A DNA stretch of 64,000 bases from Saprospiraceae bacterium. GTDB taxonomy: Bacteria > Bacteroidota > Bacteroidia > Chitinophagales > Saprospiraceae. Positions 2,994-25,942 of the stretch are shown piece by piece. The stretch covers positions 1 to 64,000 of the forward strand of contig JAIYCH010000094.1 of the NCBI GenBank assembly GCA_027488135.1. The letters are read 5' to 3'. Positions within the stretch are counted from its first letter, which is position 1. Each line of letters begins with the position of its first letter. The notes under the pieces are model-generated. The model made no database searches, was not told the DNA's origin, and saw only the letters and a program-made list of their open reading frames with translations. The position numbers and the translations under genes were made by a program.

Positions 2994-3087
2994 AAAAGCA
3001 ATGATATGTAATGATTATAAACCTATTAAATAAACAAAATGAAAAGTAGTTCTAAATGAGTGCCAAAAAAATGAAAAAAAGAGTATT

Positions 3088-3933: not shown

Positions 3934-5998
3934 TTTTATTTGCCGGATTAACATTTAATCTCAATCCAAAATAAAAAGTCCTACCTGAAGCAGGTTCAAA
4001 GAATCTGTTGGCTGCCGCATTGATTCTAATATTTGAAAAATAATCTACATTCAACAAGTTATTTACTCCACCAAAAATCTCAATACCCGATGTTTTAACA
4101 GGCAATATATACTGGCATCTTGCCCCAATTAAAAGATACCCTGGCACTGAGATAGTATTACTATCATTAACAAATTGTTTGCCCATAGACCTCATATTTG
4201 CGGAGAAGAAGAGCGATTTATTCCACTGGGTTCTGACCTCAGTAAACAACTGAAAGGGTGAAAAACCTGGCACCCAGTTACCTGCATAATTTTGTGAACC
4301 TGAAAGGTACTCTTTGAAGGTGTGATTAGCCAAAGTAAGAGACATAATGGCACTTACCTTTCTTTCAGGAAAAAAATGAGTAAATACTTCTAATCCATTT
4401 CTTCTGGAAACACCCGCATTTTTATAAAAAGTTCGACCGGGAAAAGCCTCTAATCCGTAAGCTATCCATTCATCTTTTAAATCAATTTGATATACCGATA
4501 CCTCAGATGTAAGCCATTTTACTTTTTTATAGCGATAACCCAATGAGAATTGGGACGAAGTCTGGGGTTTTAAATCAGGATTAAAACCACCCAGATTGCT
4601 TGGATTTGCGCTTAGCTCTGTGAGTGCTGGCGTTTCAAAATGTTTACTCCAATCTCCAAAAATACTGGACATGGTGGACATTTTATATACAAAACCCAAG
4701 GAAGGATTCAACCTAAGGTAGTCGATATTTCCACTATTATTACCGTCTGTTAAAAAGAGATCTTCTACGCCCATATTGATTTTATCTAACCTGGCGCCTA
4801 AAACCCCTTCCCATTTTTTATTAAAAAAATAACGATACTGGCCATAAATACCTCCAGCTTGAAACAACTCTTTCTGGTCTAAATTCAGATTACCTTTTAC
4901 ACCGAGTTTGTTAGCGAATCTCTGTCTGTTATCAACCTGACTGGAAGCTTCCATACCAATTAACCATTGAAAGGTAGGTTTTAACTGCTGCAAAGAAGCA
5001 CCTCCACCCCAAAATTGCCTGGTAAATGATACATAACCACCCGCTTCAAAAGGTAGTCTGTTATCGAAAATGCGCTTTGAATAAAAGGAATACACCTGAA
5101 TTTGCTTATTATTTTTCAACTGCTGATCCCAGGTACTACCTATTCGATACTGTACTAACTCCTCCCCTGCCTTAAACTGAATATTTCTACTAAAAGCTGA
5201 CTTTCTCGATAAACTAAGCTCAGAAGAAACTAAGGCTCCTGGATCATTAGCCAGCGGGCTGGAGGCCCAATTAAATAAAAATTTTAACTTCCCCTTTGGC
5301 AGATGAATAACATATTTACCATTAAATAAATTTGTCTTAGTCTGACTCCAGTCTCTGAATCCGGTATGTGAAAAATTACTTCCAAAAACACTCCATTCTC
5401 TTTTCGTATTTTTACCACCCATCCAAATATCTAATTTCTTCATGCCATTACTCCCTAAAAGGTAACCTGAATTCATTGAAAATGATGAAGTTGGATCTTT
5501 TGTATAAAGGGCCAATACGCCACCTGCTGCGTTACCATAAAGAATGGTACTCACACCCCTGATAACCTCCATGGTTTGAATAAAGGCCGGATCGATATTA
5601 TCTACATTGGCCTGACCGTCAGGGGTAGTTTCAGGAATACCATCGACCAGAATCCTAACCCCACGAATACCAAACGCAGACCTGGATCCAAATCCACGAA
5701 TAGATATACGCACATCCTGAGCATAATTTTCAGCATTTTGAGCCAAAACGCCTGGGACATAAGCGGCATAATCCTGAAGCGATGTTCTTGCCTGCCCCTT
5801 TAACAAAATATCTTCTGTTAAGGTGGTTACTGCCTGATTAATACGACGGCTTTCGACCGAAATTCTTGAAGCGGTAATTGGAACAGCTGGTAATTCAAAG
5901 GTATCTGATTGTCCTACAGCACTTAAAGAAGAAATCAAAGTAACGAATACCAGAAAAAGCAACAAATTACTTTTTACATTATAAAAGTGGTTATACAT
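3926..5998 (-). CDS. TonB-dependent outer-membrane receptor (siderophore/metal-receptor type)
   Basis: 690 residues from the ATG at 5998; the longer reading would start at a GTG (6013) inside the S9 peptidase gene. Signal peptide around residues 10-30 (LLLFLVFVTLISSLSAVGQ). The plug domain starts at VPITASRI and carries VRISIRGFGSRSAFGIRGVR, DGIPETTPDGQ and VIRGVSTILYGNAAGGVL, the classic pattern of FecA/FhuA-like receptors. The barrel ends FYFGLRLNV a few residues before the stop. Unlike the receptor at 579-2993 it has no CarboxypepD_reg domain. It begins 1 bp after the S9 peptidase stop and overlaps fdhD, so peptidase, receptor and fdhD form one transcription unit. A metal-chelate substrate is likely from the plug type but unproven. 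Confidence 0.92.
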   Translation of the reverse strand: MYNHFYNVKSNLLLFLVFVTLISSLSAVGQSDTFELPAVPITASRISVESRRINQAVTTLTEDILLKGQARTSLQDYAAYVPGVLAQNAENYAQDVRISIRGFGSRSAFGIRGVRILVDGIPETTPDGQANVDNIDPAFIQTMEVIRGVSTILYGNAAGGVLALYTKDPTSSFSMNSGYLLGSNGMKKLDIWMGGKNTKREWSVFGSNFSHTGFRDWSQTKTNLFNGKYVIHLPKGKLKFLFNWASSPLANDPGALVSSELSLSRKSAFSRNIQFKAGEELVQYRIGSTWDQQLKNNKQIQVYSFYSKRIFDNRLPFEAGGYVSFTRQFWGGGASLQQLKPTFQWLIGMEASSQVDNRQRFANKLGVKGNLNLDQKELFQAGGIYGQYRYFFNKKWEGVLGARLDKINMGVEDLFLTDGNNSGNIDYLRLNPSLGFVYKMSTMSSIFGDWSKHFETPALTELSANPSNLGGFNPDLKPQTSSQFSLGYRYKKVKWLTSEVSVYQIDLKDEWIAYGLEAFPGRTFYKNAGVSRRNGLEVFTHFFPERKVSAIMSLTLANHTFKEYLSGSQNYAGNWVPGFSPFQLFTEVRTQWNKSLFFSANMRSMGKQFVNDSNTISVPGYLLIGARCQYILPVKTSGIEIFGGVNNLLNVDYFSNIRINAAANRFFEPASGRTFYFGLRLNVNPANKNG

Positions 5999-5999
5999 T

Positions 6000-8414
6000 T
6001 TACTTTTTCTCACTTTCAGGTTTTGCTATGGTTTTATCAAATAGTTGTAAGATCCGTCTATATTCATCCAACCAACTGGTTGTTTCTACAAAACCGTGAT
6101 CCTCCAAAGGAAAAACAGCCAGTTCCCAATTTTCCTTGCCGAGTTCAATTAATCTTTGTGATAGACGCACAATATCTTGAAAATGAACATTTACGTCCAC
6201 CATACCATGCAACATTAGCAGATTCCCTTTTAATCCGTCCGCAAAATACATTGGAGAACTTCTCCTGTAAGCCAAGGGGTCAAGAGAAGGAACATTCAAT
6301 ATATTGGAGGTATAACCATGATTATAATGAGCCCAATCGGTAACCGATCTGAGCGCTGCACCACTTTTGAATGTATTATTTTCATTAAACAAAGCCATTA
6401 GGGTGATGAAACCGCCATAGGAACCTCCGTAGATACCTATTCTTGAAGAGTCTATATTATGTTTTTCGATAAGGAATCTGGCGCCATCTACCTGATCTGA
6501 CAGATCTTTACCGCCCATATACCTGTAAATACCTGTTCTCCAATCTCTTCCGTAACCAGCACTCCCTCTATAATCAATATCAAGAACAGTATATCCTTTG
6601 TCGGTTAAAAGATTATGAAACATGTACTCCCTGTAATAAGTACTCCACCATTCATGAACATTTTGTAAATACCCCGCACCATGAACAAATATAACGGCCC
6701 CTTTATGGCTTACATTTTTCTCTGGTTTGTACCATCTGGCAGAAACATTTTCCCCATCCCGGGCCTTAAACCAAACAATTTCGGGTTTTCTCCAGGTATA
6801 TGACCTAAAAGCATCTGAAGTAGAATGCGTAATTTGAACAGTCCTGGCATTAGGTTTATTTTCCTGAATAAAAAGCTCCCAAGGTGTATTTGAGGTAGAA
6901 AATCTGATAGCTAAATATTTTTCGTCCGGCGAAAGAGTTACTTCTGCATTTCCTACCCCAGAGGTCAATTTCACCAGATTTTTACCTGCAATATTGAGTT
7001 TATAAAAATGTTGCTGATGAGGTCCTTCTGCATTAGCAGTCAAATAAATATGTTGCCCGTCAAGAGATAATCGGGTATTTAAAACTTCAAAAGAACCTGA
7101 AGTAAGCTGCGAAACAGATTTAGATTTTAGATCGTATAGATAGAGATGTGAAAAGCCCGTTTTTTCAGATTGAAAGTAAAATTGCTCCCCACTGGGTAAC
7201 CATTCTATGTTACCCAACGCCTGGTCATAACTCTCAATACCAGGGCCGCCAATCCATGCAGTGTCGTGTTGGTGATCTATTTCCTCCCATTTTCCACTGT
7301 CAGGATCTAATAAAACCAGCCATCTATCTTTATGATCTAAGGAACGAACGACAAAAAGGGGTTGATTTTTACTACTCCAAACGGGGCCGTTGATGACGAC
7401 AGGTTTTGGGTCAGGAAAGGTATCTACAAAAGGAATTTTTGAATCCTGATACCATTTCAAATACTCAGGTTTTTTATAAATACCTGATAATTTCTTGACA
7501 TTCAGCGTATAGAACGAATCTTTTTCTGTTAGGAACACGCCCATCTCGTAAGTAGGCTGAGGAAAGCCGACTTTTTCCCTGGAGCGGAGATTGGTTGTAA
7601 AGGCTGAATTAGTGACAAAATCAGGCACTTGCGTTTCTTTGCCCACATTTTCTATGGCCAATTTGCAAGCAACAAATTTTAAGTCAGGACTATGGGATAT
7701 TTGCACCAGTCTTTTGTTCTGCAGAAAAAAAGGTTTAGGCAAAAAAAGGTTAGATTTAGGTTCCTCCCTCTTTCTTTTATCTGCTATCGCTTTCCTTTCT
7801 TCCAACACATCAAATAAATCGAGCTGCTCCTTTTCAAGCCATTGCTCTGCGGTGTTTTTTAAAGCAGGAGCATTAGGTTTTACATCAGTAAAATGAGTAA
7901 GTTGACGCATTGAACCGTCCATTAAATGAATAGCAAAAAGATTATTATTTCGTTGAAAAGTCAAGATAGAATCCCCTTTCGCAAAGGCTATATTTGATTC
8001 CCTGTCCGAGGAAATAACAAAGGGAGTGAGCGGTCCTTCAGGTAATATTTGTTTATAAATATCTCCCTCCCTTAAAATGAACCTAAGCCCTTTATTTTTA
8101 GATAATACACCTCCTGGTGGAAAAGCCAGCCACTTATCGGCAGCTAATTTGACTGGCGTTGTTGAAAATGGCGCCTTCACCTGATAAGTACTTCTCATTG
8201 AATCGTTATTAGGATTCCATGAAAAGAAAATTTCTTTACTGTTCGGGTGCCAAAAAATACCCTCTGGAGAATATCCTATATATTTTTCACCAGACATAAT
8301 AGCTTTTAAATCAAGAGGTTGATTTTTATTATTCTGTGCTGATAAAAAAGAGGCGGTGAATAGGCAGAAGACTGATACCATCAGATTAACCCGAAAAAGA
8401 AAATTCGTTCTCAT
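6000..8414 (-). CDS. Secreted S9-family prolyl oligopeptidase (DPP-IV/acylaminoacyl peptidase type)
   Basis: 804 residues from the ATG at 8414, which places a proper signal peptide first (VSVFCLFTASFLSAQ); the longer reading adds 18 residues lacking signal character. The N-terminal two thirds is a beta-propeller-like DPP-IV region with TolB/WD-style repeats (SPDEKYLAIRF, SLDGQHIYLTA). The C-terminal alpha/beta hydrolase domain carries GGSYGG with nucleophile Ser665, the acid in HGMVDVNVHFQD and the His in EDHGF. It probably trims peptides in the periplasm. It is the first gene of a coupled run with a TonB receptor and fdhD. A possible logic is peptide or chelate processing next to uptake, but that is inference. 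Confidence 0.93.
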   Translation of the reverse strand: MRTNFLFRVNLMVSVFCLFTASFLSAQNNKNQPLDLKAIMSGEKYIGYSPEGIFWHPNSKEIFFSWNPNNDSMRSTYQVKAPFSTTPVKLAADKWLAFPPGGVLSKNKGLRFILREGDIYKQILPEGPLTPFVISSDRESNIAFAKGDSILTFQRNNNLFAIHLMDGSMRQLTHFTDVKPNAPALKNTAEQWLEKEQLDLFDVLEERKAIADKRKREEPKSNLFLPKPFFLQNKRLVQISHSPDLKFVACKLAIENVGKETQVPDFVTNSAFTTNLRSREKVGFPQPTYEMGVFLTEKDSFYTLNVKKLSGIYKKPEYLKWYQDSKIPFVDTFPDPKPVVINGPVWSSKNQPLFVVRSLDHKDRWLVLLDPDSGKWEEIDHQHDTAWIGGPGIESYDQALGNIEWLPSGEQFYFQSEKTGFSHLYLYDLKSKSVSQLTSGSFEVLNTRLSLDGQHIYLTANAEGPHQQHFYKLNIAGKNLVKLTSGVGNAEVTLSPDEKYLAIRFSTSNTPWELFIQENKPNARTVQITHSTSDAFRSYTWRKPEIVWFKARDGENVSARWYKPEKNVSHKGAVIFVHGAGYLQNVHEWWSTYYREYMFHNLLTDKGYTVLDIDYRGSAGYGRDWRTGIYRYMGGKDLSDQVDGARFLIEKHNIDSSRIGIYGGSYGGFITLMALFNENNTFKSGAALRSVTDWAHYNHGYTSNILNVPSLDPLAYRRSSPMYFADGLKGNLLMLHGMVDVNVHFQDIVRLSQRLIELGKENWELAVFPLEDHGFVETTSWLDEYRRILQLFDKTIAKPESEKK

Positions 8415-12337: not shown

Positions 12338-12997
12338 TTAATCTCTCCAGATAAATGGAAATAACAACAATGCAACCCCACATAATAACAAATCTATGGC
12401 TACTAATATCGCAAGGTCACCGCTAACTGCTGTGTCTTGTATGAGCCTTAACGCGTGCGCCGATATTTTTACTAACATCAATATAATTGGAATTATTAAA
12501 GGGAAACTTAAAACAGCGAGCAGCGTGGAACTTTGATTACTCGCCGCTACCAATGAGGCTAAAAAGGTGAAAGTAACCGAAAAACCGAAACTTCCTAAAA
12601 ACAAAATGAGTAGAAATAAACCCATATCTTTTACAGGATTATCACCGAAAAAAATAAATAAACCCCATATTAATAAACTTAATACTAATAGTAACAAGGT
12701 ATTATAAACTATCTTTGCAATGAGAACATGAGATGGGTTCAATAAACTGTAATAATAAAGCACCCTGTTTCCTTTTTCCTGAACAAAACTTTTGACCATG
12801 GCATTGACGGCAACAAACAATAGAATAATCCAAAAAAGGGTATTCCATACATTGGGTTGTATCTTGACAAAAGTTTCATAAACAACAAATAAAGTGGAAA
12901 TTACATACAAAAATATACCGCTGATAGCAGAACGAGTTCTGAATTCTAACAAAAACTCTTTTCGCAACAACAATAAAATGAAATGTAAATCCTTCAT
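12338..12997 (-). CDS. ccmB: CcmB, heme exporter membrane subunit
   Basis: 219 residues from the ATG at 12997 (an upstream TTG adds two). CcmB is the permease of the CcmAB transporter that works with CcmC to load heme on CcmE. The cytoplasmic N-terminus LLLLRKEFLLEFRTRSAISG is the usual family opening. Six membrane helices follow, with FVQEKGNRVLYYYSLLNP matching the conserved EKErGtL.L block. ccmA, the ATPase subunit normally upstream, is not here. The coding start overlaps the divergent amidase start by 20 bp. Confidence 0.93.
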   Translation of the reverse strand: MKDLHFILLLLRKEFLLEFRTRSAISGIFLYVISTLFVVYETFVKIQPNVWNTLFWIILLFVAVNAMVKSFVQEKGNRVLYYYSLLNPSHVLIAKIVYNTLLLLVLSLLIWGLFIFFGDNPVKDMGLFLLILFLGSFGFSVTFTFLASLVAASNQSSTLLAVLSFPLIIPIILMLVKISAHALRLIQDTAVSGDLAILVAIDLLLCGVALLLFPFIWRD

Positions 12998-14186
12998 ATT
13001 CAATTTCTTAAAAAAGAAAACTCCTCCTATATTTATTCACGAACACAAATATAAACTACTATCATCAATCTTTGCCATAGTTCTGCTGCTATCTTCTGCA
13101 AATATCAAGGAAGAATGGTTAATGGTGAAGGCAAAACAAGGAGATGGGATAAAAAAATTATTAGTCCGATACCATTTAGATACCCACTCATGTAATGAAG
13201 AAAAATTTCTTTCCTTGAATAATTTATCGCCCGAGGCAAATCTAATCCTTGACAAAGCTTACCTTTTGCCTATTAAACAGGTTGGCTTTGACGGTAAATC
13301 CATCCGGTCAAGTTTAGGCATCACGGCGTTTGAAAAAGCAAAAGAAATTGAAAAATACAATGAACAACTTGTTTTAGACGGTATTAAATCAAAGCCATTT
13401 CAAGAAGATAAAATGCTATGGATTCCACACCATTTTTCACCCTGTGATTTGCCAGTTACCTCTAACGAAAAAGGGTATCCGATTTTTGGAAAATATGAAT
13501 CAACGCCGATCCTTTCTGATGTTTTAAAAGGTAAAATATTTTATATTATCAGTGGCCACGGCGGTCCTGACCCAGGTGCTCAGGTGGTAAAAAATGGTCA
13601 TACGCTTTGTGAGGACGAATATGCTTATGATGTTGGCTTGCGACTCTGTAGAAAACTTATTCAGGAAGGAGCCATGTCCTACATGATTACCCGGGATGGA
13701 AATGATGGTATCAGAGATGACGAAATATTACTTTGCGATAGAGATGAAACGGTCTGGGGTGGTGAAAAAATCCCTCTGAGTCAACTAAAAAAATTGGAAC
13801 AGCGGATCGATGTAGTAAAATCATTATACGAAAAAAATAAAAAAATAGCACCCAACGGTCAGTATCTTTTAGAAATTCATGTTGATTCAAGGCATACAGA
13901 ACAACAAGTTGACCTTTTTCTCTACCATCAGGCGAACAGTCAAATTTCACATCAAATGGCCAATAATATTCATAAAACCTTCAGCGAAAAATACAAGGAG
14001 AACCGCTCAACGGGTGTTTATAAAGGTACCTTGTCAAGCCGTGAATTATACTCTCTTGAAAATGCGCCCATGCCAGCTATTTATATTGAACTTGGCAATT
14101 TGAGGAATACCTTCGATCAGCAGCGGTTTATTTTACCTTCCAACAGACAGGCTTTGGCCAACTGGCTTTTCGAGGGTGTAAAATAA
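12978..14186 (+). CDS. N-acetylmuramoyl-L-alanine amidase with LysM-like N-terminus
   Basis: 402 residues from the ATG at 12978; the GTG at 12894 would lie deep in ccmB and gives no sensible N-terminus. A short basic head is followed by a membrane or signal helix (KLLSSIFAIVLLLSSA, about 26-41). A LysM-like module comes next (VKAKQGDGIKKLLVRYHL ... AYLLPI, about 50-105), then an amidase_3 zinc domain (about 184-400). Zinc ligands are His194 (SGHGGPDPGA), the EDE at 212-214 and His301 (EIHVDS), and the catalytic Glu is in IYIELGNLRN. It cuts the lactoyl-peptide bond in peptidoglycan for cell separation or recycling. It converges with the giant helicase-like gene (9 bp between stops). Confidence 0.9.
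   Translation: MKCKSFIFNFLKKKTPPIFIHEHKYKLLSSIFAIVLLLSSANIKEEWLMVKAKQGDGIKKLLVRYHLDTHSCNEEKFLSLNNLSPEANLILDKAYLLPIKQVGFDGKSIRSSLGITAFEKAKEIEKYNEQLVLDGIKSKPFQEDKMLWIPHHFSPCDLPVTSNEKGYPIFGKYESTPILSDVLKGKIFYIISGHGGPDPGAQVVKNGHTLCEDEYAYDVGLRLCRKLIQEGAMSYMITRDGNDGIRDDEILLCDRDETVWGGEKIPLSQLKKLEQRIDVVKSLYEKNKKIAPNGQYLLEIHVDSRHTEQQVDLFLYHQANSQISHQMANNIHKTFSEKYKENRSTGVYKGTLSSRELYSLENAPMPAIYIELGNLRNTFDQQRFILPSNRQALANWLFEGVK
13046..13053 (-). promoter_or_regulatory. Candidate -7 element TATATTTG for the ccmB operon
   Basis: On the minus strand the sequence reads TATATTTG, a full match to TAnnTTTG, about 50 bp upstream of the ccmB ATG and inside the amidase coding region. No well-spaced TTG box is seen. 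It is plausible because ccmB has no upstream intergenic space. Confidence 0.35.
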
Positions 14187-14195
14187 CCTAATCCG

Positions 14196-17100
14196 TTAGT
14201 ACAGATCGTTGATATTTGAAATTAACCTTTTGATTTCTAAGCTATTATTTTTCCACCAATTTACGGTCCAGATAGGTAATAATTCAATATTGTACTTTTT
14301 TAATTTATTCGTTTGTCTTACCTCCCAAATAAAGTCAGTATGGGTTTCACTGGCATGAAATCCATCTAACAGAAAAAATATATAATTGGACTGGGCCATT
14401 TTTCTCTTTATAAAAAACGGAAAAAAGTCCTGATTGAAAAAGATATTTTTTTGAATATCATGGGTTGGAAGTTTATCCTCGAGCTTCAACGACAAAACAG
14501 ACCAAAATGAAGGATAATGAGCTTTAAACGATTCTTCCCCTTCAGGTTTAAATTTTTGAAACTCATAATCCAAAGAATAGATATCTCTATTACTTATGGC
14601 TTCTAATAATTTCAAATAAGGGATGAATAAATCATCTTTATTTTCTATTTCCACCATTTGTGTTCTATTAAAAGAAGAAATAATCGTCAAATTATCCAGA
14701 GGTAACTGCGCCATTAATTCCACATAAAAAGGGGAAAAACAACGCTCATTTAAGTACTCATTTACATCATGGTAGGTGGTTAAAAGGTACACAGAATGAA
14801 AATGTTTAGATTGAATATCAGCGGGCGTTAAAATTTCCAGACCGTAATTTACCAGATGGGTAAAATGATTATTAAGCGTTGATTCCTGATGTTGAATCTT
14901 AAAAATCAGTGTTGATATAAAATTCCTTTGAGTTTCTGTCATACAAACAACCCCTATGGTTGGTATATTTTCAGGCGTTGAATAGCGAATTTTTGACAGC
15001 TCGCCGATGAGAAAAGTGGCTTCTTCCTCATTTATGCCATTTGGCTGAAGGACACCATTTATTCTATTAAAATGAACAGATGCATCCTTAATTGCATGAA
15101 TAGTAGGGTGACCTCCCTGCCACTGTTGCCATGGATTTCCCGGATAAAAGCAATGATTTTTGTATAAGCGAGAAACTGGATATCCTTGTTTTAGCTCATT
15201 ATCAATATATTCATTAGAAAATGAAGGGTTATAAAAATAAGTTACCCGAGGGGCCAGAGATTGGAATTTGGATAAAACTCCAGGAGATGAATACTGTGCA
15301 TCGCCCCAAAAAATATGGTCAAAATGAAGAGATGGGTTATTTTCAAAAAGCTCATTTAGCTGATTAACTGTCATACATACCACTGGAAAACAGTCTGTAA
15401 GCAAAGGCTTAATGTCCTCAATGAATAATAAATAATCTACTTCATTCCATGATTCTTTTTCAAACCATCTTATCATTTTTTGTAAGGTATGTTTTTCCTC
15501 TTTTCTTAACTGTTTAATACGTTCTTTCCTTTTTTGAAACCACACAGATTGTATCTGCCGGGGTAACATGCTGCGGAACAGCTCCCAATCGGCTTCAAAA
15601 GTCTCCAGTGGCAGGGACGAATCAGGAAGTTGATGATGGTAGTGTCGTAACAAGACCTGGTGCAAGTACCAATTTTTGAAGGTCATTAACCAGTCATCAG
15701 GATGAATGGTCGAAAAGGATTGTATAATTGTTTTTGCTCCTTTAGAAAGATTTTTCCAACTTGACTGCCATTGATAAAAGACGGGAAAGTCATGGAAATT
15801 TGCAAGAATATGATCCAACTTATTAACCAGAGATTCCAGCCATTTTTGACGTGCCACTAAGGTGAGTGAATGTTGCTCTAATTTTTCGAGGAAGAATGAT
15901 TTAGCATTAAAACGATGAATGGCTTCGTCCATTATGGTTTCAAGTTCGACAAATAAATCTTTCGTATTTCCAAAAGAATTTACATTGGCACTGGAGGCAC
16001 GAAGGACTTCCTCATTCACATAATCCGGAAGCCTGGACTGCCATTCTGCGGCACTTTCCTTTAATGCTTCTATGTAAACCATCCAATCTCCTAAATGTGA
16101 AATACCAAAATTCTGAGGTATTTCAGGAAAAACCCAGATTTTCTGGTTTTGAATTTTATTACTTAACTGCTGAAATAAAATATTTAGCTCTTCCCGCGCC
16201 TCTATCATTTTTTTTCCTCGCCCGGCTACCTTACTATATAAAAGGAGAGAAAAACTTTTCGTTTGGATAAAGTCATTTCCGTATAAATCAAAGTATCCAT
16301 AAAATTTATTCTTTAACTCCTCTATAAGTTCAATAATCAATTGAATTTCATTATATAAGCTAATATTTAACGCGTCTGAATATTGTGCCAGACCATTTGA
16401 GTATTCTACAAGAATAAATCGAAAATTATTCCTTTCTTCATTAAGAAGTAAATTAAACTGATCTGCTCCTTCGTCAAAATCAGAGAGATCTATAAGGCTG
16501 GTATTTAAAATATTTAAAGGATGTTGGAGCGTATTAATCGCTTCAAATCTTTTTTGTAAGGGTTCAATTTCCGACAATAATGAATAAAATTCCGAGCGTG
16601 TAAAATTAAAATTTTCTGTAGGGATTCTAATATTAACTAATTTAATTTCATCCCTACTAACGCTTTGTAAAAAAAGGGTAACAACCTCTGTCCAATCAAG
16701 TTGATCAAATATTTTTTTTCTGGACGCACCATACGCCATAGACAACTTTGAAAAAAGCCTTTGGCAGGAAGCCAAAATTTCTTTAAAGTTATCTCCGGCA
16801 AAAACGGGGGAATTTTTTTCCTGTTGAATAATGAAAGTTAATCTTTTAATGAGTTGTTTTAACTTTTCTCCCTCATAATGAGCTAAAACCAGATTTTCCA
16901 AATTATTTGAAGAAAAAAAATGGTCCAATGAATCAAAAAATCCATTATTTTCGGAAATAATAAGACAGGATCTACCATTCGATAAGGCGTTAGAAACCAA
17001 ATTAAAAAGTAAAAATTTCTTTCCAGTCCCTGCTGATCCTTCAATAATATGATGCGTATTTTCCTGGGTCTTATGATAAGCTGTAGCCTGTTCCGGTATT

Positions 17101-17780
17101 AAGACTTGCAAACCAAAAGAATGTCCAGGTAAGGTAACCTTCTGATTTTTTGCAAAATAAAGTGGCGCGCCTTGTTGTCCTTGTAATTCAAAAAGTGATT
17201 TAAAAACAAGTAATTGAACCGAATTTAAAATTTTGTATTCATTTTTCTTAATAGATACATTTTCTGCGCCTGACAAAGGAACAATAACATCATTGCTATT
17301 AAATATAGGATCAACTGCTTGATTTATAGCTCTAAAACCATCAAGATCTATGCCCTTATAAGCTAAAAATGGGGCAATCACTGCTTGTAATTTATCGAAG
17401 CAAGAAAGGGATAAAATCATTGGATTTAACGTGGGCAATAAAGACACATTCCGGTAAAACATCCATTTTACCCCCACCTTGTCAACTGGAGTTAATGAAA
17501 TATCCCAAATAAAAAAAGGTATGGCTGTAACCTCATTTCCCTCCATTGAAATCAATAAAGGGTATCCGACTTTAAGGGAAGGCGTTCCAAATCTTGAGTA
17601 AAATAATTTTTGCTTATGAAAAATTTCCCAGGTCAGCGCGGGAGAGAGCGTATTAAAAACCAGATTGGACGGCGCAATTAAATGTCCGGAGTCAGCAACC
17701 CACCTCAAAAAATCTATATCTTTCGAAAGTGCTAAAATATCTAAAGCTTTTTCATTTGTTTTTAACCTTTCATTTCCCAT
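14196..17780 (-). CDS. Giant degenerate superfamily-1 helicase-like protein (DUF4011-like head, C-terminal MTES_1575-like nuclease fold)
   Basis: 1194 residues from the ATG at 17780 (a TTG at 17789 adds three). The order of blocks parallels the DUF4011/Upf1-like helicase family. It has a head with TPSLKVGYPLLI and LLPTLNPMI; a P-loop region EGSAGTGKKFLLFNLVSNAL (GSAGTGKK at about 248-255); and ISENNGFFDSLDHFF in the place of the VSEK..AL block. After a long helical insert comes FDHIFWGDAQYSSP (about residue 826), where active relatives have FDlvIiDEASQ. Then come NEEEATFLIGEL and IGVVCMTETQ, and a tail FLLDGFHASETHTDF plus IWTVNWWKN, like the nuclease-fold end of these proteins. The Walker A Ser/Thr is Lys and the DEAD-like acid pair is GD, so ATPase function is doubtful. 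Recognition is by pattern, not search. Confidence 0.7.
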   Translation of the reverse strand: MGNERLKTNEKALDILALSKDIDFLRWVADSGHLIAPSNLVFNTLSPALTWEIFHKQKLFYSRFGTPSLKVGYPLLISMEGNEVTAIPFFIWDISLTPVDKVGVKWMFYRNVSLLPTLNPMILSLSCFDKLQAVIAPFLAYKGIDLDGFRAINQAVDPIFNSNDVIVPLSGAENVSIKKNEYKILNSVQLLVFKSLFELQGQQGAPLYFAKNQKVTLPGHSFGLQVLIPEQATAYHKTQENTHHIIEGSAGTGKKFLLFNLVSNALSNGRSCLIISENNGFFDSLDHFFSSNNLENLVLAHYEGEKLKQLIKRLTFIIQQEKNSPVFAGDNFKEILASCQRLFSKLSMAYGASRKKIFDQLDWTEVVTLFLQSVSRDEIKLVNIRIPTENFNFTRSEFYSLLSEIEPLQKRFEAINTLQHPLNILNTSLIDLSDFDEGADQFNLLLNEERNNFRFILVEYSNGLAQYSDALNISLYNEIQLIIELIEELKNKFYGYFDLYGNDFIQTKSFSLLLYSKVAGRGKKMIEAREELNILFQQLSNKIQNQKIWVFPEIPQNFGISHLGDWMVYIEALKESAAEWQSRLPDYVNEEVLRASSANVNSFGNTKDLFVELETIMDEAIHRFNAKSFFLEKLEQHSLTLVARQKWLESLVNKLDHILANFHDFPVFYQWQSSWKNLSKGAKTIIQSFSTIHPDDWLMTFKNWYLHQVLLRHYHHQLPDSSLPLETFEADWELFRSMLPRQIQSVWFQKRKERIKQLRKEEKHTLQKMIRWFEKESWNEVDYLLFIEDIKPLLTDCFPVVCMTVNQLNELFENNPSLHFDHIFWGDAQYSSPGVLSKFQSLAPRVTYFYNPSFSNEYIDNELKQGYPVSRLYKNHCFYPGNPWQQWQGGHPTIHAIKDASVHFNRINGVLQPNGINEEEATFLIGELSKIRYSTPENIPTIGVVCMTETQRNFISTLIFKIQHQESTLNNHFTHLVNYGLEILTPADIQSKHFHSVYLLTTYHDVNEYLNERCFSPFYVELMAQLPLDNLTIISSFNRTQMVEIENKDDLFIPYLKLLEAISNRDIYSLDYEFQKFKPEGEESFKAHYPSFWSVLSLKLEDKLPTHDIQKNIFFNQDFFPFFIKRKMAQSNYIFFLLDGFHASETHTDFIWEVRQTNKLKKYNIELLPIWTVNWWKNNSLEIKRLISNINDLY

Positions 17781-17983
17781 ACTACCCAAACCTGAAACGA
17801 ACTATTTGATATAATTGCACGTTTACGTTAAAAATGAACTACTTATTCTAGAGATAAAACATTAATTTACTTACAAATATAATAAAATATTGATATAGAA
17901 AAGCTTAAAAAAATGGTTGAATGAACCTTTTTAAATCATAATTATTATACAAACTGAATTAAACTATTTTAATAAATGGTTGA

Positions 17984-18763
17984 ATGTTGTTGTCTTACAA
18001 AAAAAATATGACTGGATACAAACCTACTGAAGTAGCGGTAATTCTTACCGACGAAAAGAAAAGTATTATTTGGGTAAATGATGCCTTTCTTACCATTACA
18101 GGATATTCATTATTCGAAGTGCTCGGTAAAAAACCTGGCAGTATTTTGCAGGGACAAAACACCTCAAAAGAAACCATTGAATTGATAAGTAAGTCCTTAA
18201 AAAAACAATTACCTGTAGAAACCCAAATTATAAACTATCGTAAATCAGGTGAACCCTATTCTTGTCATTTGGCTATTCATCCCGTTTTTAACGATAAAAA
18301 AGTACTGACAAACTTTATTGCTTTTGAAATGGATGAAAGTACTAAATCACCTGAGAGTGAATATAGCATGTTGCAGGTTCAAAAAAAGTATAAAGCAAGC
18401 AGTCTCGAACCAATGGATGAGGTTACCTTGTTCAGGCGGTTAAACACTTTGATAATCAGTAAAAATTTATTCCTGGATCCTGATTTAGATATAAAATTAG
18501 TAGCAGTAGGTCTCAAAAGCAATACAAAATATCTTTCCCAGGTCGTAAATAACCAATTTGGCAACAATTTTAAACATTATATCAATCAATTTAGGATTGA
18601 TAAATTGAAAGAAGTCATAAAAGATCCTAAAAACAAGGGTGTCAACTTATTTGATATGGCACAACAATGTGGATTTAAAAATAAATCCACATTTCATAAG
18701 GTATTCAGGGAATTCACTGATGCCACTCCTAAAGAATTTTTAATGCAAAACAAGGATAAATAG
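17984..18763 (+). CDS. PAS-domain AraC-family transcriptional regulator
   Basis: 259 residues. The N-terminal PAS domain (about 10-112) has the signature IIWVNDAFLTITGY and GKKPGSILQGQNT; the latter is the place where LOV photoreceptors carry their flavin-binding Cys, which is absent here. The C-terminal AraC-type DNA-binding domain (about 150-256) has two helix-turn-helix parts, the second with MAQQCGFKNKSTFHKVFREF and TPKEF. No receiver or kinase is fused. It probably reads a small ligand or redox signal. It diverges from the giant helicase-like gene across a 203-bp AT-rich gap. An alternative ATG at 18008 would also keep the PAS domain whole. Confidence 0.88.
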   Translation: MLLSYKKNMTGYKPTEVAVILTDEKKSIIWVNDAFLTITGYSLFEVLGKKPGSILQGQNTSKETIELISKSLKKQLPVETQIINYRKSGEPYSCHLAIHPVFNDKKVLTNFIAFEMDESTKSPESEYSMLQVQKKYKASSLEPMDEVTLFRRLNTLIISKNLFLDPDLDIKLVAVGLKSNTKYLSQVVNNQFGNNFKHYINQFRIDKLKEVIKDPKNKGVNLFDMAQQCGFKNKSTFHKVFREFTDATPKEFLMQNKDK

Positions 18764-20244: not shown

Positions 20245-20733
20245 ATGACTGTTAAAATTTTTGTTACCGGTGGAACTTTCGACAAGGAATATAACGAACT
20301 CGACGGTTCCCTTCATTTCAAAGATTCCCATTTACCTGAGATGCTGACAAGAGGTCGGTTTCAAGTGCCCGTTGATTGGACGACCCTGATGATGATGGAT
20401 AGCCTCGATATGACAGATAGTGACAGACATACGATTGCACAACATTGTATTTCAACACCTGAAAAAAATATTGTAGTTACTCATGGCACGGATACCATGG
20501 TTGAAACAGCTAAGGTTATTGCCCATCTTGTAAAGGATAAAACCATTGTGCTGGTCGGTGCAATGGTTCCCTATACTTTTAGTAGTTCTGACGGTTTTTT
20601 CAACTTAGGTACCGCCTTTGCTTTTGTACAAACGCTTCCCACAGGGGTGTACATTGCTATGAATGGGCGATACTTTAAATGGGATAATGTTCGTAAAAAC
20701 AAAAAAGAAGGAATATTCGAGGAAATCAGCTGA
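20245..20733 (+). CDS. Single-domain asparaginase-like protein
   Basis: 162 residues, about half of a normal L-asparaginase. Only the N-terminal Rossmann-like domain is present. It keeps the residues that make the active site: TGGTFDK with the first catalytic Thr (residue 8-11 region), VTHGTDTM with the Thr-Asp pair, GAMVPY and SSDGFFNLG. The protein ends in a short basic tail, with no trace of the C-terminal domain in the next 9 bp before the convergent gene. Such one-domain forms occur in many bacteria. Hydrolysis of asparagine or a related amide is possible but not shown. Confidence 0.82.
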   Translation: MTVKIFVTGGTFDKEYNELDGSLHFKDSHLPEMLTRGRFQVPVDWTTLMMMDSLDMTDSDRHTIAQHCISTPEKNIVVTHGTDTMVETAKVIAHLVKDKTIVLVGAMVPYTFSSSDGFFNLGTAFAFVQTLPTGVYIAMNGRYFKWDNVRKNKKEGIFEEIS

Positions 20734-20741: not shown

Positions 20742-21335
20742 TTATTCCCTTAGAAACTCTAAGTTATCCTCCCCGTCTAATTCCACCAAAACAGCCTCTT
20801 CTCCGGTAATATTTTTGCTGTTTTTCAACTCGACGATTTCATCAGCAAGGGCTTTCACACTTTCATCTATTGCATCGAATGCATTGCCTTTTATTTCTTC
20901 GCCGATAAATGCAGAAGTAGTCCAAAGACCCTGGCTCACCAGTTGGATAATTGTACTTATCCCTACAGAGTTATCCATTCTGAAAGCTATTTTTGAGGAT
21001 AAATTTGCTATATGTTCAGGTAAATTGTCTGACGTCAACAAAATACTGAGGGGACGAGAATGAAAAGAGAGTAAGGTTTCTACTCTGGGAGATAAATCAG
21101 GCACATAGTACTTAAATTGTTCTATAGAATTGACCAGGCATTCATAATTAAAATGAAAGTTATCGCGTTTGAATGATAGTAAACGTTCTACAGATTTATC
21201 ATCGTCGAGTAAACATATTAAGGACCATACCGTTTGCGTTTGAATTAATACGATCTTTCCTTCTTTCAAGGCTGAAGCTGCTGTCAGGATTTTAGGATCA
21301 ATATTTTGAAAATCAATACTATTTATTTGAACCAT
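20742..21335 (-). CDS. Degenerate YrdC/TsaC-like protein (threonylcarbamoyl-AMP synthase paralogue)
   Basis: 197 residues from the ATG at 21335 (a GTG at 21350 adds five). The fold pattern of the short TsaC/YrdC enzymes can be followed: ALKEGKIVLIQTQTVW for the usual GG.v.yPTdTvwGlg start, RPLSILLTSDNLPEHIA, KIAFRMDN and LWTTSAFIGEE. Key positions are changed: the glycine-rich GIG.d turn is SLICL, the region after the KR pair (KRDNFHF) lacks the usual residues, and the STSAN asparagine is Phe. Active TsaC makes L-threonylcarbamoyl-AMP for tRNA t6A. This copy may be inactive or repurposed. Its start shares the CATG with the divergent PKD gene. Confidence 0.7.
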   Translation of the reverse strand: MVQINSIDFQNIDPKILTAASALKEGKIVLIQTQTVWSLICLLDDDKSVERLLSFKRDNFHFNYECLVNSIEQFKYYVPDLSPRVETLLSFHSRPLSILLTSDNLPEHIANLSSKIAFRMDNSVGISTIIQLVSQGLWTTSAFIGEEIKGNAFDAIDESVKALADEIVELKNSKNITGEEAVLVELDGEDNLEFLRE

Positions 21336-23664
21336 GTTAAAATTTACCACTAAGTTAAAGTCAAAATTATTCCTATTAACGCTGAATAGGAGTTTCTTGT
21401 TTTTAATGTTTTATATTTTCACAACCCCTCTTTTTGCTGAACACATCATTGGCGGGGTAATGAGCTACAAAATACTGCGATATACCAACAATGATCCTCT
21501 TTCTAATAGTTGGCGATACAAATTTACATTAAAAATATATAGGGATTGCCAGGGATCAGGGGCAAATTTTGATTCAACTCCGGGGACTTTCGCTGCCAAT
21601 GCGACTATTTATCGCCTGGATCAAAAAAATATTCCTGTAAAAACAATTATTTTTCCTTTGCCAAGCGTCCTTAAAATAAATCCAAATCCAGGAAATGAAT
21701 GCTTAAAAGTACCTCCCAATGTATGTGTAGAGGAGGGAATCTACGAACTAGAGACAGATTTACCCATTATTGACGCTGCTTATGTTATTAGTTATCAGAG
21801 ATGTTGCCGGAATATTTCTATTTCAAATATTGTCAATCCAGCGCTAACCGGAGCGACATTTTCTGTTGAAATAAGTTCTGCTGCTCAAAAAGCTAAATTA
21901 GATAGTCCGGAATTTTTAAACTTCCCCCCTGTTGTTCTCTGTGCAGGACAGTCTTTTGATTTTGACCAGTCGGTCACTTCTGTCAGTGGCGACAGTTTAG
22001 TTTATACGTTGGCAAACCCAACCACCGGTGGAGGGCCCGACAATACTAATGCCAAGATTGCCAACGGTGTTGCCCCCGATCCGGACCTCCCTCCCCCTTA
22101 CGCTGAGGTTCAGTACGTTGGCCCAACATTCACCAGTGCTAAACCCCTTGGTTTAAACAGTATTCTTACCATACATCCCAGAACGGGACTCATTCAGGGG
22201 AAACCAGCTTTAACAGGACAATTTGTATTAGGAATTGAGGTAAAACGCTATAGGAATGGTATTTTGTACCATACGTTGAGAAGAGATTTTCAAATAAATG
22301 TAGGAAATTGCGATGCTAAAGTAAAAGTTACATTGCCCCTCACAAATGTCCCTGGCACCAATGAAAATATCTTTCAAAATTGTGGTGATACTAAAGTGAC
22401 CTTCAAAAATGACAGCCAGGATACCTCCGCCATTACCTCTTATAACTGGACGTTTACCGGTGCTGCGCCAACCCAAATATTTACATCTAATCAACGCAAT
22501 GCCACCATTGATTTTTTAACATCGGGCACCTATAATGGTAAGTTAGTCCTTAACCCGACAGGAACCTGTAAAGATTCATTGTCTTTCAAGGTAGTTATTC
22601 CTCAAAAAGTTAAAGCCGAAATTCAGGTCAAAGGCGATTCTTGTGTTGGCCTTCCCCTTAGCATTACCTACAATGGTTTGGTTAAGCCAACCTTCATCCG
22701 TTGGGATTGGGAGAGATTCAGTGCAACCTCAAATGGTTTGAAAGGTTGGGTGATTGGTACAGACACCTTTCCAATCGGCACAAGATCTGGAAGTTATACT
22801 ATTCAGCTTTTGGTGGTAGGTGAGGGAAACTGCAGGGATTCCACCATCGTTAAGGTGCCCTATTATCCAATTCCAGGTTTTGCAAATATTGATGTAACTC
22901 CTTCTGATGCATGTCTGGGAACTCCTATCAAATTTTCGACGAACCCTGATATTTCAAAGGAAGATCTTACCGTCAAGTGGGAATTTGGCGATGGTAAGAC
23001 TTCAAACACCTTACCAGCAACCCATACCTATACTAAGGAGGGTCTTTATAAAGTCAGTATTACCATAACTACTGGAAATGGTATCTGTACCAAAAAAATA
23101 GATCTGACTAATGAACTGAATATGCGAGTTGCCCCAACAGCTTCCTTCTCATATTCCCCAAAAGAGGATCTTTCGCTAAAACAACTAGTTACTTTTACGA
23201 GTAATTCCGGCAACCAGTTAAAGCATTTGTGGAAAAATGGAGATAAAAGAATAGATTCCACCCTCAATTTTTCCTATGCACTTCCCGACACAGGTTTTAT
23301 TCCCATCAGTTTACTGGTCACCGATATTTTAACAGGGTGTTCTGCCATACTTTTACAGGAAATATATGTTAAACCTCAGGTAAGAATTTATATTCCCAAT
23401 GCATTTTCGCCCAATTTTGACGGCATTAACGATGAATTTATCGCTTTAGGTGATTTGGATATTTTACAGGACTATAAAATGCAGTTATTTTCACGATGGG
23501 GAAATCCTGTTTTTATTTCCACCGATCCCAAGGTTGGTTGGGATGGCAGTCTGACAAACGCCAATCAAGGTGCGCCAGCAGACACCTACATTTATATGAT
23601 CAGTTATACAGATAATAAGGGAGAAAAACAGTATTTTTCAGGAACCGTTCTATTAATGAGATAA
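21334..23664 (+). CDS. Large PKD-domain surface protein with type B T9SS sorting domain (copy 1)
   Basis: 776 residues. Signal peptide (about 1-34, ending LFAEH). A Cys-rich N-terminal region follows (HIIGGVMSYKILRY, YRDCQG, PPNVCVEEGIYEL, YQRCCRN, SLVYTLANPTTGGGPDN; about 35-330). Then come PKD-like modules, the clearest with VKWEFGDGKTSNTLPATHTY. The tail is a gliding-motility-associated C-terminal domain (YIPNAFSPNFDGINDEF, FSRWGNPVF, GWDGS, GTVLLMR; about 690-776), the sorting signal for the type IX secretion system. It is expected to be exported and held on the cell surface, perhaps in adhesion or gliding. It is paralogous to the next gene. Confidence 0.9.
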   Translation: MLKFTTKLKSKLFLLTLNRSFLFLMFYIFTTPLFAEHIIGGVMSYKILRYTNNDPLSNSWRYKFTLKIYRDCQGSGANFDSTPGTFAANATIYRLDQKNIPVKTIIFPLPSVLKINPNPGNECLKVPPNVCVEEGIYELETDLPIIDAAYVISYQRCCRNISISNIVNPALTGATFSVEISSAAQKAKLDSPEFLNFPPVVLCAGQSFDFDQSVTSVSGDSLVYTLANPTTGGGPDNTNAKIANGVAPDPDLPPPYAEVQYVGPTFTSAKPLGLNSILTIHPRTGLIQGKPALTGQFVLGIEVKRYRNGILYHTLRRDFQINVGNCDAKVKVTLPLTNVPGTNENIFQNCGDTKVTFKNDSQDTSAITSYNWTFTGAAPTQIFTSNQRNATIDFLTSGTYNGKLVLNPTGTCKDSLSFKVVIPQKVKAEIQVKGDSCVGLPLSITYNGLVKPTFIRWDWERFSATSNGLKGWVIGTDTFPIGTRSGSYTIQLLVVGEGNCRDSTIVKVPYYPIPGFANIDVTPSDACLGTPIKFSTNPDISKEDLTVKWEFGDGKTSNTLPATHTYTKEGLYKVSITITTGNGICTKKIDLTNELNMRVAPTASFSYSPKEDLSLKQLVTFTSNSGNQLKHLWKNGDKRIDSTLNFSYALPDTGFIPISLLVTDILTGCSAILLQEIYVKPQVRIYIPNAFSPNFDGINDEFIALGDLDILQDYKMQLFSRWGNPVFISTDPKVGWDGSLTNANQGAPADTYIYMISYTDNKGEKQYFSGTVLLMR

Positions 23665-23668
23665 GATT

Positions 23669-25942
23669 ATGAACTATCTACGCATTCTTCCCTACGTTAT
23701 CCTCCTTAGCAGCTCTTGTTTTTTTGGCGTAAACTTGCAGGCAAAACACCTCATTGGTGGTAATTTAACCTATAAATGCCTTGGAAATGGTGACTATTCT
23801 TTTACGCTAAAAGTTTATAGGGATTGTAATTGTACTGATTGTGCAGCGTTAGACCCGATTGCAGATATTGGGATTTACAGATGTAATGGCGATGCAGAGT
23901 GCGGACGACTGCGACAAAATTCAGTTTATGCACGTTTGCAGGTTCCCTTAACTTCAAAAAGGAATGTAGACCGACCTGATTACCCTTGTTTAATTCCCCC
24001 AAATATCTGTGTTGAAGAAGGAATTTATGAATTTAAATTAAGTTCTTTGGGCGTTCGCTTACCTGCGGGAAATACTTCTTATCATATTGCCTATCAACGT
24101 TGTTGCCGGAATAATACCATCACTAATATTATTAATCCAGATCAGGTAGGCTCAACTTATAGCATAGAAATAACTCCTGAAGCACAGGCTATTTGCAATA
24201 ATAGCCCTGAATTTAAAACCTTCCCTCCAACAGTTATTTGTGTTAATAATGAATTAAAATACGATCATAGTGCTAAAGATGCCGATGGAGATTCTTTAGT
24301 TTATTCTTTTTGTGCCCCTTTTAACGGTGGTGGACCTTCTACAAATAATGTGATTTACAGAACCTGTGAAGGCGCTTACCCTAATCCTGCTTGTCCTCCA
24401 CCCTATGCATTGGTTACCTTTCGTGGTGGAAATATTACATCATCGACGCCCATGGCCGGAGATCCTATCGTTAGCATAGATTCAAAAACTGGATTGATAA
24501 CGGGAAAACCTACCGCAAAAGGACAGTTTGTAGTTGGCGTTTGTATTGCTGAATATAGAAATGGTATTTTAATAAGTAAATCAAACCGGGATTTTCAATT
24601 TAACGTGGCCGATTGTGACCCATTGGTTTTCGCTAAACTGGGCGATGCCGTCGCCGTTACAGATCAGGAGTATAAAGTTATTTCATGTGGTATTACCGAT
24701 GTAAAATTTGTAAATAACAGCTATCAACGTGCCTCCATTAAAAGTCAAAAGTGGGAATTCCCCATTAGAAATACCAAAATAACGTCAACTGATTGGGAAC
24801 CAACCTTAAAATTTCCAGGCATCGGAAAGTATAATGGTAAACTCTGGTTAAATCCAGGCACAGGATGCGCAGATTCTGCGGACATAGAAGTCCTTATTTT
24901 TCCGGATTTAACACCAGATTTTACTTATAAATATGATACTTGTTATGCCCAGCCCGTTAATTTCACCGATATGTCAGTGAGCGGAAGCGGGGGAATAGCC
25001 AGTTATAACTGGGTTTTTGGTGACGGGCAAAAAGGGACGGGCAAATTAACAGATCATCAATATAATTTAGCAGGTGAATTTTCTGTATCCTTAACAGTAA
25101 AGGATTTAAATCAATGTACAGAAACGGTTACAAAAAAGGTTCGCTATTTTCCCGCTCCAGCCATCTTAGTTGTTAAACCCTCCCAGGCAACAGGCTGCGC
25201 ACCTGTTAATATGGTTTTTGATAATTTGTCAAAACCTATCGATGAAAGTTACAAGGTTAACTGGGAATTTGGAGATGGTGGAAAAAGTACTAAAATAAAT
25301 CCTGTTTACACTTATACCAAAGAAGGCATTTATTCCGTAAGTCTCTCCGTAACCTCCCCCATAGGTTGTAAAATAGATACTGTTTTTAATAATCTTATTA
25401 AAATTTCTTCCTCACCTGAAGCAGCTTTTGATTTTGCACCGAAGCAGATAACCAATATAGATAATAAAGTGGTGTTTACAGATGAATCTATTAATGCTGT
25501 ACGCTGGCGATGGGACTTCGGTGATAAAGCACAACTTGAGGAAAGAAACCCCATTCATCTTTATCAGGACACCGGTATATTTACTATTACCCTCATTGTA
25601 ACACATCCAAGTGGCTGTTTAGATACCGCTCAGGCTTTACTCGATGTAAGACCTGATGTCAGATATTTTTTACCCAATGCCTTTACGCCAAATTATGATG
25701 GTAAGCATGATGTTTTCAGGGGGGTGGGCATAATGACTGGCGCCACAAATTTTAAATTTCAAATTTGGAATCGATGGGGAGAAAGAGTCTTTTTTACCGA
25801 TGACATTGATCAGGGCTGGAATGGAAATCACCTCAATACTGGTTCAGCATCTCCGGAGGGCGTTTACATAACCTTGATTTCCTATAAAGATCCCCGGGGT
25901 GTACCAGTGGAAATCAAAGGATTTGTAACTCTTTTACGTTAA
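23669..25942 (+). CDS. Large PKD-domain surface protein with type B T9SS sorting domain (copy 2)
   Basis: 757 residues, starting 4 bp after the stop of copy 1, so certainly in the same operon. It has the same plan: signal peptide to about 27 (VNLQAKHLIGG), then a Cys-rich N-terminal region with YRDCNC, PPNICVEEGIYEF, YQRCCRN and DGDSLVYSFCAPFNGGGPS. The PKD modules (YNWVFGDGQKGTG, VNWEFGDGGKSTKINPVYTY, WRWDFGDKAQLEE) are better preserved than in copy 1. The gliding C-terminal domain carries FLPNAFTPNYDGKHDVF, IWNRWGERVFF and GWNGN. The shared N-terminal region is followed by diverged middles, the mark of an old tandem duplication. Surface location by type IX secretion is expected; ligand unknown. 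Confidence 0.91.
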   Translation: MNYLRILPYVILLSSSCFFGVNLQAKHLIGGNLTYKCLGNGDYSFTLKVYRDCNCTDCAALDPIADIGIYRCNGDAECGRLRQNSVYARLQVPLTSKRNVDRPDYPCLIPPNICVEEGIYEFKLSSLGVRLPAGNTSYHIAYQRCCRNNTITNIINPDQVGSTYSIEITPEAQAICNNSPEFKTFPPTVICVNNELKYDHSAKDADGDSLVYSFCAPFNGGGPSTNNVIYRTCEGAYPNPACPPPYALVTFRGGNITSSTPMAGDPIVSIDSKTGLITGKPTAKGQFVVGVCIAEYRNGILISKSNRDFQFNVADCDPLVFAKLGDAVAVTDQEYKVISCGITDVKFVNNSYQRASIKSQKWEFPIRNTKITSTDWEPTLKFPGIGKYNGKLWLNPGTGCADSADIEVLIFPDLTPDFTYKYDTCYAQPVNFTDMSVSGSGGIASYNWVFGDGQKGTGKLTDHQYNLAGEFSVSLTVKDLNQCTETVTKKVRYFPAPAILVVKPSQATGCAPVNMVFDNLSKPIDESYKVNWEFGDGGKSTKINPVYTYTKEGIYSVSLSVTSPIGCKIDTVFNNLIKISSSPEAAFDFAPKQITNIDNKVVFTDESINAVRWRWDFGDKAQLEERNPIHLYQDTGIFTITLIVTHPSGCLDTAQALLDVRPDVRYFLPNAFTPNYDGKHDVFRGVGIMTGATNFKFQIWNRWGERVFFTDDIDQGWNGNHLNTGSASPEGVYITLISYKDPRGVPVEIKGFVTLLR

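What the first reader, a model, noticed from the sequence alone, without database searches (positions are those of the whole stretch)
14196..17780. A 1194-residue helicase-like protein whose ATPase motifs are eroded but whose overall plan is kept
Block by block the protein follows the DUF4011/Upf1-like superfamily-1 helicases that end in an MTES_1575 nuclease-like fold. The P-loop, however, reads GSAGTGKK, with Lys for the Ser/Thr that binds magnesium. The motif II position reads WGDAQY instead of DEASQ, and I cannot find the arginine finger block near the end. The C-terminal FLLDGFHAS keeps one acidic residue. A long single-gene protein under no obvious decay (no stops or frameshifts in 3.6 kb) argues for a kept, altered function: a nucleic-acid or nucleotide sensor, a scaffold, or a defence-like factor. 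It stands alone, with a PAS-AraC regulator diverging from it.
Basis: partly seen in the sequence, partly recalled or inferred. Interest (0 to 1): 0.72.

Follow-up and report, generated by a model that had tools for sequence, protein, structure and literature searches.

The report
Conserved pseudohelicase beside PAS-AraC regulator
A large bacterial protein descends from a DNA/RNA helicase-nuclease, lacks the residues for burning ATP and cutting, and is still preserved by selection, probably as a non-enzymatic binding protein paired with a sensor-type gene regulator.

Summary
The gene (minus strand, 14196-17780, 1194 aa) is homologous along its length to DUF4011/Upf1-like SF1 helicases ending in an MTES_1575 (Vsr-like) domain (hhalign probability 100%, 1075 columns). 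The GKK P-loop and WGDA motif II are in 7 of 7 same-genus genomes, under purifying selection (omega 0.14): not a decaying allele. It belongs to a clade of roughly 1250-aa proteins seen only in the window's own bacterial family (Saprospiraceae-like): 16 of 17 matches from other families carry all canonical helicase motifs, the 17th is a fragment. Within the clade the motor erodes in parallel: P-loop intact in 54, motif II DE in 31, motif VI Arg in 27 of 74 rows, all three in 20; RecA2 is unrecognisable or deleted in about five lineages. Two of three nuclease-like acids are missing in nearly all rows. Where both genes lie on one contig, a PAS-AraC gene stands head-to-head (32 of 32 tabulated). 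Best reading: a chromosomal pseudohelicase kept as a folded nucleic-acid- or protein-binding scaffold linked to that regulator. Loss of catalysis and the scaffold role are inferred from sequence. AlphaFold models failed; no fold search was possible. Defence is suggested by ancestry, not by context.

The parts
14196..17780 (-). Pseudohelicase gene, 1194 aa (DUF4011-like N-terminus, RecA1, long helical insertion, RecA2, MTES_1575/Vsr-like C-terminus; domain limits are mine, from the alignments)
17013..17039 (-). Altered P-loop GSAGTGKKF (residues 248-256); Lys where the Mg-binding Ser/Thr should be; GKK in 7 of 7 genus sequences
15291..15308 (-). Motif II position WGDAQY (825-830); WGDASY in the six relatives; no DE pair
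14916..14942 (-). Motif IV MTETQRNFI (947-955) with Q951-R952 retained
15411..16775 (-). Central, mostly helical insertion (residues 336-790); matched, at least in part, also in the shortest family members; lowest point estimate of regional omega in the genus (0.110)
14601..15200 (-). RecA2 region (861-1060), motifs V and VI lost
14205..14600 (-). C-terminal MTES_1575/Vsr-like domain (1061-1192); D of EID and E of IECD absent, D1139 of LLDG kept
17781..17983 (.). Divergent promoter region between the pseudohelicase and PAS-AraC genes
17984..18763 (+). PAS-AraC regulator gene (PAS_9 E 9.3e-17, HTH_18 E 1.4e-12), head-to-head neighbour in many genera
12975..14186 (+). N-acetylmuramoyl-L-alanine amidase (Amidase_3), convergent with the pseudohelicase; start of the amidase-ccmB-ccsA-GDH-Lrp neighbourhood shared with several genera

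Best explanation
The gene encodes a pseudohelicase: an SF1 (DUF4011/Upf1-like) helicase fused to a Vsr-like nuclease fold that became a chromosomal, vertically kept gene in the Saprospiraceae-like family and lost its chemistry. Shown: homology, absence of the residues for Mg-ATP hydrolysis (motifs I, II, III, V, VI) and of two of three nuclease-like acids, retention of all domains in the window's genus, purifying selection, and linkage to a divergent PAS-AraC regulator. Inferred: the RecA pair and helical insertion still fold and bind nucleic acid or a partner protein without unwinding or cutting; its amount is set by the PAS-AraC regulator; it acts as a scaffold or adaptor in whatever response the PAS domain senses.
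For: GKK and WGDA in 7 of 7 same-genus genomes. Omega 0.139 mean over 21 pairs. In motif-less members the RecA domains are no more diverged relative to the central region than in motif-complete ones (ratio 0.99 vs 0.97, 9 vs 19 rows, p 0.69). Graded erosion over the family: of 74 rows motif I intact in 54, II in 31, VI Arg in 27, all three in 20, none in 15; minimum changes 11, 13 and 16, or 11, 13 and 14 on a tree of the central region only. RecA2 missing or unrecognisable in L101/L078/L140, L074/L152, L098/L166/L168, L162/L163 and L103/L104, minimum 5 changes. Those of g19 and g7 (L098, L166, L168, L162, L163) still stand head-to-head with PAS-AraC. Amino-acid identity of 36-80% at saturated or nearly saturated synonymous sites in seven P-loop-less or RecA2-less pairs. 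PAS-AraC head-to-head in 32 of 32 genomes tabulated with both genes on one contig. Precedent: D. radiodurans PriA lacks ATPase and unwinding but binds DNA and DnaB (PMC4504706, abstract read).
Against: No biochemistry and no usable structure model (pLDDT 29.7 full length, 38.9 C-terminus). The P-loop glycines and first Lys are kept in the genus, which a pure scaffold would not need. The gene is less constrained than 7 of 8 neighbours measured (thiolase, ccmB, ccsA 0.045-0.047, GDH 0.016, peptidase 0.079, amidase 0.084, PAS 0.127; only Sua5, 0.148, is looser) and than motor-intact relatives (0.027-0.059 for the three g72 pairs with a finite dS), so some relaxation is likely. In G024 the gene is absent between PAS and amidase (L154), and in G481 it reads as two overlapping ORFs (L169), so it is dispensable or decaying there. 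12 of 61 PAS-bearing genomes lack a strong family match (hand count), and many family loci showed no PAS gene in the stretch fetched.
Confidence: 0.6

Rival explanations
1. Nucleotide-dependent switch: the kept glycine-rich loop GxAGTGKK still binds ATP/GTP without magnesium, the second Lys replacing the metal, so the protein reports nucleotide state without hydrolysis.
For: 8 of 9 P-loop residues are invariant in 7 genus sequences while several codons differ synonymously; motif IV Arg kept.
Against: Other family members have lost the P-loop altogether (L073, L076, L090, L093, L136) or RecA2, so nucleotide binding is not needed by the family as a whole; regional omega of RecA1a is not low (0.169).
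Confidence: 0.2
2. Anti-phage defence factor related to ProA/Hhe, with the sensing part kept and the effector supplied elsewhere.
For: Best models are NCBIfam ProA (26 of 28 members, best 7.3e-56) and Hhe (23 of 28, best 3.4e-32); PADLOC PDC-S37 E 1.6e-6.
Against: Far below the curated cut-offs (33.5 of 1500 bits, 15 of 2000). Neighbours are housekeeping-like and synteny is shared across genera; the clade was seen only in one bacterial family, unlike a roaming defence gene. Defence genes fixed at core loci exist, so this is not decisive.
Confidence: 0.1
3. A still active but non-canonical motor or nuclease.
For: All domains retained in the window protein; motif IV Arg kept.
Against: Loss of motifs I (Ser/Thr), II (DE), III, V and VI together.
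Confidence: 0.05
4. A gene on the way out: long erosion with no remaining function.
For: Absence in G024, shortened forms in the same genus g19, split ORFs in G481; weaker constraint than motor-intact kin.
Against: Omega 0.139, every one of 21 pairs 0.103-0.164; open frame in 7 of 7 genus genomes, one of them cut in two by contig ends.
Confidence: 0.05

Closest known systems
DUF4011 / Upf1-like SF1 helicases ending in MTES_1575 (own-genome paralogue on contig C156, 1490 aa; NCBIfam Hhe and ProA models)
   Same: Order of domains along the length; hhalign probability 100%, E 6.3e-42
   Different: Canonical ones have GPPGTGKS, DEASQ and TRAR/TRAK, and many IECD; the window protein has none of these intact
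Deinococcus radiodurans PriA pseudohelicase (PMC4504706; abstract read)
   Same: Bacterial helicase without ATPase activity, kept for binding
   Different: PriA has a known role and partner in replication restart; it belongs to another helicase superfamily (SF2, recalled)
Utp25 pseudohelicase of the SSU processome (PMC9539457; search listing and start of abstract only)
   Same: Helicase-like protein called a pseudohelicase
   Different: Eukaryotic ribosome assembly; another helicase family (recalled)

Membership tests
SF1 helicase, DUF4011/Upf1-like (ancestry) | Full-length profile similarity | tested here: met
   hhalign A2 vs A3: probability 100, E 6.3e-42, 1075 columns
SF1 helicase, DUF4011/Upf1-like (enzyme) | Motif I GxxxxGK[ST] | tested here: not met
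   GSAGTGKKF; 54 of 74 family rows meet it, 0 of 7 in the genus
SF1 helicase, DUF4011/Upf1-like (enzyme) | Motif II DE | tested here: not met
   WGDAQY/WGDASY
SF1 helicase, DUF4011/Upf1-like (enzyme) | Motif VI arginine | tested here: not met
   LMAQLPLD
SF1 helicase, DUF4011/Upf1-like (enzyme) | Motif IV Gln-Arg | tested here: met
   Q951-R952
MTES_1575 / Vsr-like nuclease | Pfam score above the gathering score | tested here: not met
   12.0 vs 38.2 bits; canonical paralogue 67.8 bits
MTES_1575 / Vsr-like nuclease | Acidic residues of EID...IECD (which of them are catalytic is recalled, not from a call) | tested here: not met
   Only the last D kept
NCBIfam ProA / Hhe anti-phage proteins | Curated bit-score cut-off | tested here: not met
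   33.5 of 1500 and 15 of 2000 bits
Pseudohelicase (functional class) | No ATPase or unwinding activity in vitro, binding kept | not testable with these tools
   needs protein
RecA fold by structure comparison | Match of a confident model to SF1 structures | tested here: inconclusive
   models pLDDT 29.7 and 38.9, so no fold search was made

The most novel reading that the evidence does not exclude
A chromosomally fixed SF1 helicase-nuclease was converted, within one bacterial family, into a non-enzymatic component tied to a PAS-AraC signalling regulator, with motor chemistry lost in parallel many times and whole RecA2 domains lost in about five lineages while the helical insertion and Vsr-like end were kept: a natural series from motor to scaffold.
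Probability: 0.4. Interest if true: 0.72.

Novelty: new variant of a known kind. Interest (0 to 1): 0.56.

Why it matters
Few pseudohelicases have been described (three papers hold the word in the library searched). This family gives dozens of homologues at every stage, from complete motifs to lost RecA2, many at one shared locus, so which parts of an SF1 helicase matter once the motor is gone can be tested directly. It also warns against naming DUF4011-type proteins helicases, nucleases or defence proteins from domain hits alone, and it points to an unexplained PAS-AraC partner pair in Saprospiraceae-like bacteria.

Tried and rejected
Lone decaying allele: rejected by 7 of 7 orthologues and omega 0.139. 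Selection shifted from the RecA domains to the central region in motif-less members: tested, not seen (ratios 0.97 vs 0.99, p 0.69). A burst of change on the genus stem specific to this gene: tested, not seen; PAS (1.56) and amidase (1.80) show a larger genus/other ratio than the focal gene (1.37, 1.38). Structure: full-length AF2 on 7 rows and C-terminus on 6 rows were both unusable, so no fold search was run. Family present outside its bacterial family: checked on all 14 other-family matches and all 3; 16 of 17 carry GPPGTGKS, [FL]DEASQ and TRA, the 17th (L188) is a fragment with GPPGTGKS, and the 16 group with the canonical helicases (100*). Apolipoprotein A-I hits of the profile fall in the helical insertion and are taken as coil noise. 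Window 13-bp repeat as operator: not conserved in five relatives.

Literature: searches for DUF4011 (3 papers), pseudohelicase (3), MTES_1575 (4) and four word combinations listed no paper whose title or start of abstract described this family; held a term with a literal 'OR' that could match next to nothing, so they are weak. Most subscription papers are not in that library.

Caveats on counts: trees are poorly resolved (28 of 74 inner branches open; 33 of 73), minimum changes count gains and losses, and motif intactness uses simple patterns. Rows dropped: one search left out L003, L006, L026, L028, L035, L059-L064, L077 and identical sequences; one search left out L033, L095, L098, L103, L104 (under 900 aa) and L031, leaving 74 family rows plus L002, L025 and L034; one search took out 11 close relatives or fragments before aligning. 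Genome draws are samples: 60, 396, 398, 298 and 295 genomes. The 205 of 398 include canonical DUF4011 paralogues. Of the 61 PAS-bearing genomes 46 were tabulated, 5 more were opened (head-to-head in all five), 8 have no family match, and two (G162, G201) were not opened.

Full report
What is there. The ORF is on the minus strand, 17780 to 14196, 1194 residues, no stop or frameshift. Alone it hits library models weakly: SLFN-g3 helicase 0.0037, AAA_12 0.037, MTES_1575 0.23, anti-phage ProA 7.7e-9 and Hhe 0.0029, PDC-S37 1.6e-6. The window lies in a 4.2-Mb, 156-contig genome; the nearest named relatives are MAG records labelled Saprospiraceae, Haliscomenobacteraceae, Haliscomenobacter hydrossis, Bacteroidetes and Bacteroidota.

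Homology. A 7-row genus alignment against three canonical DUF4011-type helicases (own-genome L002, plus L025 and L034) gave probability 100%, E 6.3e-42, 1075 aligned columns. The canonical three carry GPPGTGKS, DEASQ, TRAR/TRAK and, in two of three, IECD. A profile of 28 family members also finds SMUBP-2 (8e-6), DNA2 (9e-5) and UPF1 (1.1e-4) among the sequences of solved structures, through the P-loop region; apolipoprotein A-I hits in the helical insertion are probably noise.

Is the change conserved? Yes. The gene is in 7 of 7 genomes of the genus (own plus six), the six 88-90% identical, all with GxAGTGKKF and WGDA[SQ]Y. In one, G004, it is cut in two by contig ends. Mean dN/dS is 0.139 (21 pairs, range 0.103-0.164). 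Of eight neighbours Sua5 (0.148) is looser; PAS 0.127, amidase 0.084, peptidase 0.079, thiolase and ccsA 0.047, ccmB 0.045 and GDH 0.016 are tighter. Regional values are N-terminus 0.237, RecA1a 0.169, central 0.110, RecA1b 0.115, RecA2 0.133 and C-terminus 0.122, with overlapping intervals except N-terminus against central. Motor-intact relatives are tighter (0.027, 0.049, 0.059 in the three g72 pairs with finite dS).

A family with graded erosion. Homologues at mostly 20-27% identity and about 1000-1360 aa occur across the window's bacterial family. Outside it, I examined all 17 matches (14, 3): 16 have complete GPPGTGKS, [FL]DEASQ and TRA motifs and group with canonical helicases, one is a fragment. 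Among 74 rows of the window's family, motif I is intact in 54, motif II DE in 31, motif VI Arg in 27, all three in 20 and none in 15, seven of these being the window's genus; the motif IV Arg is in 67. Of the nuclease-like residues, the first D is kept in 7, the E in 1 and the last D in 67 of 74, so the cutting end went early (inference). Minimum changes on the tree are 11, 13 and 16 and, on a tree from the central region alone, 11, 13 and 14, with RecA2 loss at least 5 times. Shorter forms skip RecA2 in the profile match and keep central-region and C-terminal matches. Seven P-loop-less or RecA2-less pairs keep 36-80% amino-acid identity at saturated or nearly saturated synonymous sites.

Neighbourhood. 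The PAS-AraC gene is head-to-head with the family gene in 32 of 32 tabulated genomes where both were on one contig, 14 more having them on different contigs (coordinates); six of the 32 are the window's genus. Five further loci opened agree. Amidase, ccmB, ccsA, GDH and Lrp lie nearby in several genera. PAS was found in 61 of 298 genomes; by hand count 49 of these have a strong family match (E 4e-127 or better), 4 of genus g7 only weak ones and 8 none. Two g7 sites opened (L162, L163) hold 765- and 711-aa forms beside PAS. In G024 the gene is absent and PAS lies 254 bp from the amidase (L154). Many members, including the motor-intact g72 loci opened, showed no PAS in the stretch fetched, so the pairing is not universal. 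The context is vertical and housekeeping-like.

How it most likely works. Shown: ancestry, missing catalytic residues, selection, linkage. Inferred: no ATPase and no nuclease activity; a folded binding scaffold whose level follows the PAS-AraC regulator. The kept P-loop glycines leave a metal-free nucleotide switch open. The defence reading rests on ancestry. A DUF4011 gene of P. aeruginosa is described as a core gene flanking a defence hotspot (PMC10250203, two passages read), and MTES_1575 was named as a Vsr-type REase in PMC3710099 (passages read).

Limits. Models were unusable, trees are weakly resolved, genome draws are samples, motif calls depend on the alignment (one small alignment shifted the window's motif II), and no expression or biochemical data exist here.

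Noticed in passing
PAS upstream regions of L067, L068, L069, L081, L136 and others: A TTTTGTTTAA element (up to 1 mismatch; TTAAACAAAA on the PAS strand) lies shortly upstream of the PAS gene's probable Met in many genera, in differing frames so not coding, with a second copy 153-155 bp away towards the pseudohelicase in five loci. 0 of 200 shuffles reach the counts, but the motif was picked from three of these loci. It also occurs beside PAS where no family gene was found next to it (L154, L155, L165), so it belongs to the regulator and may be its operator; weak in the window's genus.
   Followed up: partly
window 17911-17923 and 17974-17986: Exact 13-bp direct repeat AAATGGTTGAATG; the first copy borders a roughly 35-bp stretch absent from five close relatives, and neither copy is conserved in them.
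   Followed up: partly
L169 (G481) 2713-6457: The family gene beside PAS reads as two overlapping ORFs (715 and 544 aa), a frameshift or assembly error.
   Followed up: no
window 20245-20733: 162-aa asparaginase-like N-terminal half (family recalled from sequence), 94-96% identical in four genus relatives over the same length.
   Followed up: no
G000 contig C156, about 21-25.8 kb (L002): A canonical 1490-aa DUF4011-type helicase with an N-terminal GYF_2 domain in the same genome.
   Followed up: partly
L062, L063 and L066-L104: A short MORN_2-like protein (Pfam hit below cut-off on one member) occurs in 17 of 41 fetched family loci, and a GH3-like gene (recalled from sequence) in 9 of 41.
   Followed up: partly
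window 21334-25942: Two tandem 757-776-aa proteins, about 36-43% alike where one matched the other's orthologue in relatives, probably secreted (recalled).
   Followed up: no
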